Source: Deltaproteobacteria bacterium (lineage in GTDB: Bacteria; Desulfobacterota; DSM-4660; Desulfatiglandales; Desulfatiglandaceae). Taken from it: 48,122 nucleotides of DNA. The position numbers and the translations under genes were made by a program. The notes beneath the pieces were generated by a model. That model searched no databases. It was not told where the DNA came from and saw only the letters and a list, made by a program, of their open reading frames with translations. Of this stretch, positions 44,910-47,666 are shown piece after piece. Position 1 is the first letter of the stretch, and each line of letters starts with the position of its first letter. Where the stretch lies: assembly GCA_019307945.1 (NCBI GenBank), contig JAFDIS010000021.1, positions 1-48,122 of the forward strand, written 5' to 3'.

Positions 44910-44938
44910 TTGACATAATGACAGTTAACTGTTATATT
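44910..44938 (+). promoter_or_regulatory. Promoter of the MerR gene, apparently giving a leaderless mRNA
   Basis: TTGACA at 44910-44915 and TATATT at 44933-44938 are 17 bases apart, a near-consensus sigma-70 promoter. Transcription would begin at 44944-44946, at the ATG itself (44945). No Shine-Dalgarno lies before that ATG. Confidence 0.7.
44921..44932. promoter_or_regulatory. Palindromic operator candidate between -35 and -10
   Basis: ACAGTTAACTGT is a perfect 12-base palindrome that fills the spacer between the -35 and -10 boxes, extended by partial symmetry (ATGACAG..CTGTTAT). This is the usual place for a MerR-family operator, so the MerR protein encoded just downstream probably binds here. 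Confidence 0.65.
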
Positions 44939-44944
44939 TTTGTC

Positions 44945-45337
44945 ATGGAAGAAAAAAAATACACGATTCAAGACCTCTGTGATCTTTCTGGATATACAAG
45001 AAGAACAATTAGATACTATGTCCAGGAAGGCCTTTTGGAGCCACCGGCGGGAAGGGGGCGTGGAGGCTTTTATTATGACAGTCATTTGAAAAGACTTCTT
45101 CAAATAAAGGCCTTGCAGGACAAGGGACTGAAACTTGCCGCAATCCAGGAACTGGTAAAAGGAAGGGAGAGGCCCGAACTCCAACCCTCCAGGGAGTTGT
45201 GGGTGAAGTACCTTATCGATCGTGGGATTGAAATCCACATCACCCGGGAACTGGAGGAGAAAGAGAGGAAGAAAATTGCAGAAATCATCCGGGTTGCCAG
45301 ATCAATTATTGAATCAGGAGGAAAAGGGCATGACTGA
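44945..45337 (+). CDS. MerR-family transcriptional regulator
   Basis: The 130-residue protein has a MerR winged helix at the very N-terminus (YTIQDLCDLSGYTRRTIRYYVQEGLL split over residues 6-31), with RGGFYYDSHLKRLLQIKALQ as second wing, then a coiled dimerisation helix. There is no cysteine-rich metal site, and the C-terminal part is short, so the signal is unknown. ATG 44945 begins at the predicted transcription start. The gene is AT-rich compared with the catabolic cluster. Its end overlaps the start of the VIT/VWA gene by eight bases, so the two form a coupled operon under MerR control. Confidence 0.87.
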   Translation: MEEKKYTIQDLCDLSGYTRRTIRYYVQEGLLEPPAGRGRGGFYYDSHLKRLLQIKALQDKGLKLAAIQELVKGRERPELQPSRELWVKYLIDRGIEIHITRELEEKERKKIAEIIRVARSIIESGGKGHD

Positions 45338-47666
45338 AACCAATGGCCTTGTTCCCTTGCTGGGTGTGAAAGTCGAGGCGGATATCCTGGGCTGGGGGGC
45401 AAGGGTCAAGGTATCGCAGAGGTTCAGGAACCTGGAAGCGAGGGCAATAGAAGCCGTGTACAAATTCCCGCTGCCGGAAGGTGCGGCCATATGCGGTTTC
45501 AAGGCGATTGCGGATGGGAAAGTGATCCGGGGGGAGGTGGAAGAGCGCGAAAAGGCCTTCGAGATTTATGATGATTCCCTCGCAAGGGGTGATGGCGGTT
45601 ATCTTCTGGACGAAGAACGGCCAAATATTTTCACCCTTTCCGTCGGGAATCTGAATCCGAATGCCGACGTCACGGTGGAGATCGATTATCTCACGCTTCT
45701 GGATACGGAAGGCCCAAAGACGAGATTTTTTCTGCCCACCACTATTTCCCCACGGTACCTCCCGGAAGATATGGAAGAGGACGACGGCATACCCCCTGAG
45801 AGTAAGCTCCATCCCCCCTATGCCTCAAATGTCCCCTATGGGCTGTCCATTTCTCTCCGTATTCACAAGGGGAATCTCTTGGAAGGTGTGGAATCTCCAA
45901 GTCATCAAATACGCGTTGAAAACATGAAAGATGACCCGGTGAACGTAACCTTGTCCACAGAATCTGTGAAGATGGACAGAGATTTTGTCCTCTACATGGA
46001 ATACCAGGATGCCTACGTGAACAGGGCCTACCGCTACCGGGAGGACGGGGAAGTCTTTTTCCAGGTGGATTTTTATCCGGAGAGGGATCCGCAGGACTCC
46101 CTGAGTAAAGACAAACAATCGCTTCAAGGACACGGTGAAATAGTCTTTGTGGTGGATTGTTCGGGTTCCATGGCAGGAGATTCTATCCATGAAGCGAAGA
46201 GGGCCCTGGAGATCTGCCTCAGGGCCCTAGACCAGGGCACCTCGTTTAATATCTACCGGTTTGGATCGACGTTCGACCGCCTCTTTCCCGCTTCCCGGGA
46301 TTACTCAGAAAAAAGTCTGGAGACGGCCCTCGACTATTTAGAGAAAATGGACGCCGACCTTGGAGGCACGGAAATCCTGGGGCCCTTTGAGGAGGTCTAT
46401 TCTACTGAATCTCCGAAAATGAAAGGCAGGCGTTCCATCATCCTGATCACGGATGGGGAGGTTGGGAACGAGGCTGAAATCATTGCAAAAGCGAAGAGCA
46501 GCCAGGACACTTCAAGGCTTTTCTCAATAGGCATTGGAGCCGGGTGCAACGAGTATTTCATCAAAGGCATCGCCAGGGCGGGCGGAGGCGCGTCTTCGTT
46601 TATTTACCCCGGGGAGAGAATTGAACCCAAGGTCCTGGAGGTCTTCGGCAAGACACTGCAAGAAGGGCTCGTGAATCCGGCGATCCAGTGGGGCGTGGAT
46701 TCTGCGGAACAGGCACCCATAGCGCCCGCCATTTTCCTTGAGAGTCCTGTGACAATATTTGCGAGATGCAGCACAGATCAGCCGTTGGGTGACAAAGTCA
46801 TTGTAAAGGGCGAAGTGAGCGGCCGGGAAAAAATATGGGAAATCGATGTCCAGGACTCGGATCAACCCGGGCCCCCGCTTCCGATCCTTTGGGCAAGAGA
46901 GAGGATAAGAGACCTGGAGGAATCCGGGGCCGACTCTTACCGGTCAGGATCACGGCAAAAGGATAGGAAGCTGGAACGGGTGAAAGATACGGTTATCCAG
47001 CTTTCAAAACGATATGGAATTCTCTCCCAGTCCACCAGTTACGTGGCCATAGAAGAGCGTCAAGAGAAGGACAAGACCACGGGTGAGGTGGCTCTCAGAA
47101 AGATACCCGTTCCCATCACCATCGGCTGGCACGGACTTGGCGGCATTCTTGGCGCGGGTGGGACCGGAAGATTTTGGCATTCTTGGCGCGGGTGGGACCG
47201 GAAGATTTTTGGATATAATGCCCTCCATGCATGTTGGCGATGTGAGTGCGCAACTGATGTCCGAGCATGAGATGGCGTGGGATGCGCAACCGGAAACGCG
47301 CTTCTGCGTTGCACCGGCCCGCGAGGTTAGGAAGGACCTGCTTCTTTCCATCCTTGCGAGTCAGAAGGCAAACGGCGGGATGGAGATCGACGAAGAGATC
47401 GCCTTTGCTCTGGGCATTGAGAGATCGCGGAGGCAATAGAACTTGACGGCTCTTTTGACAAATTCCTTCTACTTTCAACCGCCATGCTCCTCCAGGTTTT
47501 GGAGCTCCATTTTGCCCAGGAGGTGAAGACCTGGAAAAATACCGTGAAGAAGAGCATACGCTGGATGAAAAACGTGTTGGCCAAGGGACATCCTCGTATT
47601 CATCGGGAAGACATGATGGTTTGGGTAGGGGATTTCGTACAAGAAAGTGTACGGGTGAATTCCTAG
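45330..47666 (+). pseudogene. VIT- and VWA-domain protein with a frameshifted C-terminus
   Basis: The first ~605 residues are intact: a VIT (inter-alpha-trypsin) domain (about 10-135, with FPLPEGAAICGF), then a VWA domain with a full metal-ion site: DCSGSM near 273, GGTEI near 351, and LITDGE near 375. At 47142 a 34-bp tandem duplication shifts the frame, and the current protein ends at 47270 with a ~25-residue aberrant tail. The original continuation is readable in the next frame (GRFLDIMPSMHVGDVSAQ to GIE near 47418). A 2-nt GA gain at 47419-47424 then moves it to a third frame (LDGSFDKFLLLSTAML..), ending at 47666. Without both changes the protein would have 766 residues. The front could still fold. 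No signal peptide is seen. Confidence 0.83.
47142..47209 (+). repeat. 34-bp perfect tandem duplication
   Basis: The unit at 47142-47175 (GGCATTCTTGGCGCGGGTGG...) is repeated exactly at 47176-47209. Because 34 is not a multiple of three, it breaks the VIT/VWA reading frame; removing one copy restores it. Perfect identity suggests a recent event or an assembly artefact. Confidence 0.95.

What the first reader, a model, noticed from the sequence alone, without database searches (positions are those of the whole stretch)
44910..47666. Leaderless MerR gene, palindromic operator and coupled VIT/VWA gene
TTGACA and TATATT put the transcription start at the ATG of the MerR gene, and there is no Shine-Dalgarno. 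A perfect ACAGTTAACTGT palindrome fills the spacer. The VIT/VWA gene overlaps the MerR gene by eight bases. A self-regulated one-signal module controlling a VIT/VWA protein is not a system I know, and the region is more AT-rich than the rest, which suggests transfer.
Basis: partly seen in the sequence, partly recalled or inferred. Interest (0 to 1): 0.65.

Follow-up and report, generated by a model that had tools for sequence, protein, structure and literature searches.

The report
MerR–VIT/VWA module with leaderless promoter
A small DNA-binding protein and a large vault-PARP-like VIT/VWA protein travel together as a two-gene unit in many unrelated bacteria, with few exceptions under the same start signal, in which the regulator's apparent binding site sits inside the promoter and the message begins at the start codon itself; the pair appears undescribed and its job is unknown.

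Summary
TTGACA (44910) and TATATT (44933) are 17 nt apart, the ACAGTTAACTGT palindrome lies in that spacer, the MerR ATG is 6 nt after the -10, there is no Shine-Dalgarno, and the VIT/VWA gene overlaps MerR by 8 nt. In the window alone this is not beyond chance. Comparison makes it strong. All 13 close MerR homologues from a scan of 84,980 genomes (several phyla) are followed directly by a VIT/VWA gene and carry the same promoter and operator. In 17 aligned loci the -35 to -10 block, operator included, is conserved while the flanks are near random. MerR-linked VIT proteins form one clade, lack a secretion signal, and differ from the known sortase-target VIT proteins. The genome has one exact operator and no excess of near matches. 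Best reading: MerR represses its own leaderless bicistron, which encodes a cytoplasmic VIT/VWA protein; the module is patchy and probably mobile (two cases on plasmids). In three phyla the next gene is a TmtA-type defence ATPase, which hints at a stress or defence role. Repression, signal and function are inferred. The window's own VIT gene is broken by two frameshifts. I found no paper describing the pair.

The parts
44910..44915 (+). -35 hexamer TTGACA
   Evidence: conserved in nearly all homologous loci
44919..44934 (+). predicted MerR operator TGACAGTTAACTGTTA; core palindrome ACAGTTAACTGT 44921-44932
   Evidence: family consensus TGACAGT-N4-TGTTA inside the spacer, core columns 1.7-2.0 bits
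44933..44938 (+). -10 hexamer TATATT
   Evidence: conserved
44941..44945 (+). possible third half-site TGTCA overlapping the start codon
   Evidence: TGTY directly before the start codon in 7 of 26 loci against 0.23 in shuffles, 0 of 20000
44945..44945 (+). predicted transcription start = A of ATG (leaderless)
   Evidence: 6 nt after the -10; no Shine-Dalgarno; same geometry in homologues
44945..45337 (+). MerR-family regulator, 130 aa, invariant wing motif PPAGRGRGGFY.DSH in the close subfamily, short beta-hairpin plus helix C-terminus
   Evidence: PF13411 E 1.5e-19; alignments; model
45316..45321 (+). Shine-Dalgarno AGGAGG of the VIT/VWA gene
45330..45337 (+). 8-nt overlap of MerR end and VIT/VWA start
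45330..47270 (+). VIT/VWA gene, reading frame as sequenced (646 aa; VIT 12-120, VWA about 270-424)
   Evidence: PF08487 E 3.6e-33, PF13768 E 1.9e-23
47142..47209 (+). 34-bp tandem duplication that shifts the VIT/VWA frame
47210..47666 (+). remainder of the VIT/VWA gene (C-terminal helical domain) in two other frames
   Evidence: tblastn with the intact L005 and L006 proteins

Best explanation
This is an autoregulated two-gene module. The MerR-family protein binds as a dimer to the inverted repeat TGACAGT-N-ACTGTTA between the -35 and -10 of its own promoter and keeps it off. When an unknown cue releases it, RNA polymerase uses the near-consensus promoter with its optimal 17-nt spacer, and the transcript starts at the A of the MerR ATG, so MerR is translated from a leaderless mRNA. 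The VIT/VWA cistron has a strong Shine-Dalgarno and overlaps MerR, so its synthesis is coupled to MerR's. Its product is a cytoplasmic relative of the VIT-VWA part of vault PARP (PARP4), with an intact metal-ion (MIDAS) motif and an extra C-terminal helical domain, and is probably the effector. Since MerR lacks conserved cysteines or a ligand domain, the cue most likely reaches it through protein contact, possibly with the VIT/VWA protein itself, as HspR does with DnaK or GlnR with glutamine synthetase. The module moves between phyla. Shown computationally: pairing, promoter-operator conservation, single genomic site, clade structure, absence of secretion signal. Inferred: binding, direction of regulation, leaderless start, cue, function.
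For: All 13 close MerR homologues are followed by VIT/VWA, as are all 11 MerR matches at E<=1e-20 in 297 phylum genomes (some VIT copies broken). In the promoter alignment of 17 loci, columns from -35 to -10 are mostly 1.2-2.0 bits while the upstream flank is near 0.1, and the -10 to ATG distance is mostly 6-9 nt. Shine-Dalgarno of 4 or more bases: 5 of 32 MerR starts against 31 of 32 VIT starts. The operator-promoter pattern with up to 1 mismatch has 7 hits in 297 genomes, 4 of them at these pairs. One exact site in its own genome, near matches at control level. In the VIT tree 25 MerR-linked proteins form one clade (SH-aLRT 100); 2 label changes against 15.8 in shuffles. MerR and VIT distances correlate, r 0.88, 0 of 2000 permutations. 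PARP4 VIT-VWA match E 8e-94. CvkR is a MerR repressor translated from a leaderless mRNA (PMC9938897).
Against: No expression, 5'-end or binding data. A few loci break the pattern: L081 and the Massilia plasmid keep inverted repeats upstream but have a long leader with a Shine-Dalgarno; L026 and the distant Chloroflexota pairs lack the operator. MerR proteins are often activators; repression rests on the 17-nt spacer and consensus hexamers. The distance correlation can come from shared descent alone. The window's VIT gene is frameshifted and may be inactive here.
Confidence: 0.68

Rival explanations
1. MerR is a signal-dependent activator of its own promoter, in the way of MerR, CueR or SoxR, twisting the spacer when a ligand binds.
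For: The operator lies between -35 and -10, the position used by MerR activators; the N-terminal fold matches CueR, CadR and PbrR.
Against: The spacer is 17 nt in most close loci with near-consensus hexamers, whereas activated MerR promoters have 19-20 nt (general knowledge, not tested here). No conserved cysteines and no long coiled-coil or sensor domain in the model.
Confidence: 0.2
2. The palindrome is a site for another global regulator, and MerR acts elsewhere.
For: No binding has been shown.
Against: The operator goes with this MerR family across phyla and is nearly absent elsewhere in the genome.
Confidence: 0.07
3. The MerR gene starts at an upstream codon (GTG 44858 or ATG 44903), so it is not leaderless and the promoter-like block is coding.
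For: The frame is open upstream in the window.
Against: In L006, L007, L009, L015, L023 and others an in-frame stop leaves only the ATG that aligns with 44945; protein alignment begins there; the block is conserved as promoter and operator DNA.
Confidence: 0.05
4. The VIT/VWA gene belongs to the sortase-target VIT/VWA proteins and acts at the cell surface.
For: TIGR03788 is its best NCBIfam match, E 8.5e-101.
Against: 338 bits against a cut-off of 551.65; no N-terminal hydrophobic segment, median peak 1.03 against 2.5 in unlinked VIT proteins; no sortase gene noticed beside it, unlike Rhizobium; separate clade.
Confidence: 0.05
5. The module is part of an anti-phage or stress-defence system, with the VIT/VWA protein acting with a TmtA-type ATPase where present.
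For: In three phyla the next same-strand gene is TmtA-like, with gaps of about 17, 55 and 23 nt; the profile used finds TmtA in only 6 of 297 genomes; 0 TmtA among 10 genes near unlinked VITs. A plasmid copy sits near an AbiEii-family gene and a DNA methyltransferase.
Against: Most pairs have no such neighbour. PADLOC has no model for the VIT protein. Co-location in islands does not show co-function. This is compatible with, not exclusive of, the best explanation.
Confidence: 0.3

Closest known systems
CvkR (Alr3614), MerR-type repressor of type V-K CAST (PMC9938897, PDB 7xn2)
   Same: Short MerR-family protein without a classical sensor, translated from a leaderless mRNA, with a short inverted repeat containing ACA...TGT, regulating a horizontally moving system; among the top fold matches of the MerR model.
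   Different: CvkR controls cas12k and tnsB, has motif AnnACATnATGTnnT, and is not paired with VIT/VWA; the sequence match is confined to the DNA-binding part.
HspR and GlnR (MerR-type regulators with a protein co-effector)
   Same: MerR-family regulators controlling an operon with their protein partner (general knowledge).
   Different: Only sub-cut-off similarity to HspR (30.8 against 105 bits); the partner here is VIT/VWA and any contact is untested.
PARP4 VIT-VWA region and inter-alpha-trypsin inhibitor heavy chains
   Same: Same VIT then VWA architecture; PARP4 E 8e-94, ITIH1 best fold match E 5e-35.
   Different: No PARP catalytic domain; bacterial; extra C-terminal helical domain after a flexible linker.
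Marine proteobacterial sortase target proteins (TIGR03788)
   Same: VIT and VWA domains.
   Different: Next to a sortase in Rhizobium; no MerR; different clade.
Archaeal ArnB (VWA protein regulating archaellum genes)
   Same: Cytoplasmic VWA-containing regulatory protein; fold match E 1e-14.
   Different: Partial match only (TM-score 0.25 on the query); partner ArnA is an FHA protein, not MerR (general knowledge).

Membership tests
MerR family of transcription regulators | MerR winged helix-turn-helix above Pfam gathering score | tested here: met
   PF13411 70.3 bits against 21.6
MerR family of transcription regulators | Binding to an inverted repeat between -35 and -10 | not testable with these tools
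   Site present and conserved; binding not measured
Classical MerR activators (MerR, CueR, ZntR, SoxR) | Curated equivalog score | tested here: not met
   All at most about 32 bits against cut-offs above 100
Classical MerR activators (MerR, CueR, ZntR, SoxR) | 19-20 nt spacer | tested here: not met
   17 nt in the window and in most close loci
Classical MerR activators (MerR, CueR, ZntR, SoxR) | Conserved metal- or redox-binding cysteines | tested here: not met
   No conserved cysteine in 26 pairs
Leaderless mRNA | 5' end at the start codon | not testable with these tools
   Predicted from -10 to ATG distance and lack of Shine-Dalgarno
VIT/VWA proteins | VIT and VWA domains above gathering score | tested here: met
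   PF08487 and PF13768
VIT/VWA proteins | MIDAS residues D-x-S-x-S, T, D | tested here: met
   DCSGS, GGT and TDG invariant in 13 proteins and present in the window protein
TIGR03788 sortase target | Equivalog score | tested here: not met
   338.3 against 551.65
TIGR03788 sortase target | Signal peptide and neighbouring sortase | tested here: not met
   No hydrophobic N-terminus; no sortase noticed among neighbours, though neighbours were not scanned for sortase specifically
Known anti-phage defence systems (PADLOC 2.0) | Model match for the VIT effector | tested here: not met
   0 families for L006 VIT; MerR matches mad1 over the HTH only

The most novel reading that the evidence does not exclude
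A previously undescribed, horizontally spread control module in which a MerR repressor, made from a leaderless message and sensing its own VIT/VWA partner, switches on a bacterial vault-PARP-like protein that works in stress or phage defence, in some lineages together with a TmtA-type (sacsin-like) ATPase in the same operon.
Probability: 0.25. Interest if true: 0.82.

Novelty: new variant of a known kind. Interest (0 to 1): 0.62.

Why it matters
Leaderless genes with a promoter layout conserved across phyla are unusual in Gram-negative-type bacteria, and this set gives about 26 natural replicates, with leadered exceptions, to ask why leaderless translation is kept. It also separates a cytoplasmic, regulated branch of VIT/VWA proteins from the secreted ones. 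Human PARP4 and ITIH proteins share the VIT-VWA part, and PARP4's function in vaults is still unclear (PMC4245714), so a two-gene bacterial system would be a simple place to study it. The TmtA association gives a direct test of a defence role.

Tried and rejected
Window-only statistics: not beyond chance. A regulon of operator sites in the genome: none above control. Phage carriage: no match. Conserved third gene across all pairs: none; TmtA in three only. PADLOC mad1 match to MerR: rejected as a generic HTH match. Selective decay of VIT with MerR kept: seen in several loci, but VIT is about six times longer, so not significant. Distant Chloroflexota MerRs (L060-L063, L065, L068, L070, L071) and L073 were not followed by a detectable VIT and were treated as outgroup. 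Literature searches on MerR with VIT or VWA found no description of the pair. The identification of TmtA with the Tiamat system is from memory; the one paper checked does not name TmtA.

Full report
WHAT IS THERE. The window is a whole contig (C165) of a 4.16-Mb genome assembly. TTGACA (44910-44915), a 17-nt spacer and TATATT (44933-44938) precede the ATG at 44945 by 6 nt. ACAGTTAACTGT sits in the spacer at 44921-44932 and extends imperfectly to TGACAGTTAACTGTTA. MerR (130 aa) ends at 45337. The VIT/VWA gene starts at 45330 with AGGAGG 8 nt before it; MerR has no Shine-Dalgarno. On shuffled sequence neither the promoter nor the palindrome would stand out. The VIT/VWA frame stops at 47270 because of a 34-bp tandem duplication; a second shift follows, and the remaining C-terminal domain reads to 47666 in two other frames.

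THE PAIR IS CONSERVED. One scan of 84,980 bacterial and archaeal species genomes with the MerR protein returned 13 close homologues, in records named Desulfobacterales, Syntrophaceae, other Deltaproteobacteria or Proteobacteria, Nitrospirae, Chloroflexi, Acidobacteriota and TA06. All 13 are followed directly by a VIT/VWA gene at 45-60% identity to the window's. In 297 genomes of the window's phylum, all 11 MerR matches at E<=1e-20, down to about 35% identity, are also followed by VIT, broken in some. Two Burkholderiales plasmids, Aquabacterium olei pTB101 and one of Massilia sp. H6, carry the pair with the second gene annotated 'VIT and VWA domain-containing protein'.

THE PROMOTER-OPERATOR IS CONSERVED. 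For 17 close pairs, alignment of the upstream DNA gives mostly 1.2-2.0 bits per column from -35 to -10, with ACA and TG of the two half-sites at 2.0. Columns further upstream are near 0.1, and those between -10 and ATG are mostly low. The distance from -10 to the start codon is mostly 6-9 nt. Of 32 pairs, 5 have a Shine-Dalgarno of 4 or more bases before MerR and 31 before VIT. The strict pattern has 7 hits in 297 whole genomes, 4 of them at these pairs. The more distant subfamily keeps the layout too, with spacers of 15-18 nt. A further TGTY half-site directly before the start codon occurs in 7 of 26 loci against 0.23 expected. Exceptions are L081 and Massilia (long leader with Shine-Dalgarno), and L026 and distant Chloroflexota pairs (no such operator). 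An upstream start is excluded in several homologues by in-frame stops.

REGULATION. In the home genome there is one exact operator, and 2-mismatch counts (69 and 70) match those of the reversed pattern (68 and 66). This fits a regulator dedicated to its own operon. MerR lacks conserved cysteines. The model shows a winged helix followed by a short linker, a beta-hairpin and two helices in place of a long coiled coil (mean pLDDT 81). Fold matches are general MerR proteins, including CvkR. With near-consensus hexamers 17 nt apart the promoter should not need activation, so I infer repression; this rests on general knowledge of MerR activators, which use 19-20 nt spacers. CvkR shows that a short MerR protein can be a repressor translated from a leaderless mRNA (PMC9938897).

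THE VIT/VWA PROTEIN. Intact relatives are about 750-813 aa: VIT, VWA with invariant MIDAS residues, a flexible linker and a helical C-terminal domain. The closest solved relatives are PARP4 by sequence (E 8e-94) and ITIH1 by fold (E 5e-35). MerR-linked VIT proteins form one clade of 25 apart from 21 unlinked ones, the exception being two distant Chloroflexota pairs; the label needs 2 changes against 15.8 in shuffles. Linked proteins lack an N-terminal hydrophobic segment (median peak 1.03) while unlinked ones have it (2.5). The known sortase-target family is therefore not the right home (338 against 551.65 bits). MerR and VIT distances correlate at r 0.88, which also follows from shared descent.

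MOBILITY AND CONTEXT. Distribution is patchy: the close type is in 4 of 297 phylum genomes, and four of the seven same-family genomes examined (the window's own included) lack any match. The VIT tree mixes phyla, GC is lower than the contig, and two pairs are on plasmids. No third gene is shared by all. In three loci from Nitrospirota, Chloroflexota and the window's phylum, however, the next same-strand gene is TmtA-like by PADLOC, with best E-values from 2.5e-268 to 1e-86 and gaps of about 17, 55 and 23 nt. The one TmtA profile used for a census finds only 6 of 297 genomes, and 10 genes near unlinked VITs gave none. This is a lead towards stress or phage defence, not proof; most pairs lack it. 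TmtA as the Tiamat protein is from memory.

VERDICT. How the module is switched and what the VIT/VWA protein does are open.

Noticed in passing
window 47142-47209: 34-bp perfect tandem duplication inside the VIT/VWA gene causes a frameshift; a second frameshift lies near 47421-47437. Real decay or assembly error not decided.
   Followed up: partly
L125:5905-7092 (genome G132, same family as the window): VIT gene cut to about 205 aa, with a small gene pair resembling YefM/YoeB (by eye) just downstream, while MerR and its promoter are intact.
   Followed up: no
L118:9246-14999 (genome G044): Downstream of the MerR-VIT pair lie a TmtA-like sacsin-domain ATPase and a Cas3-like gene.
   Followed up: partly
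L010:8707-11814 and L013:8765-11944: TmtA-like genes directly downstream of VIT in Nitrospirae and Dehalococcoidia, possible three-gene operons.
   Followed up: partly
G000:C93:2639-4342: A second VIT/VWA gene of the home genome matching at the level of the unlinked class (E 1e-94); its upstream region was not read.
   Followed up: no
L064 (Chloroflexota): A MerR relative with a TTGACA...TGTCATG-like upstream region followed by a VWA protein whose VIT match is weak.
   Followed up: no
L009:3636-6062: An Hsp70-like protein with TPR repeats directly downstream of a VIT gene.
   Followed up: no
L015:6384-8789 and L016:6415-8781: VIT genes of two other phyla are also split by frameshifts or stops while MerR is intact.
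   Followed up: no
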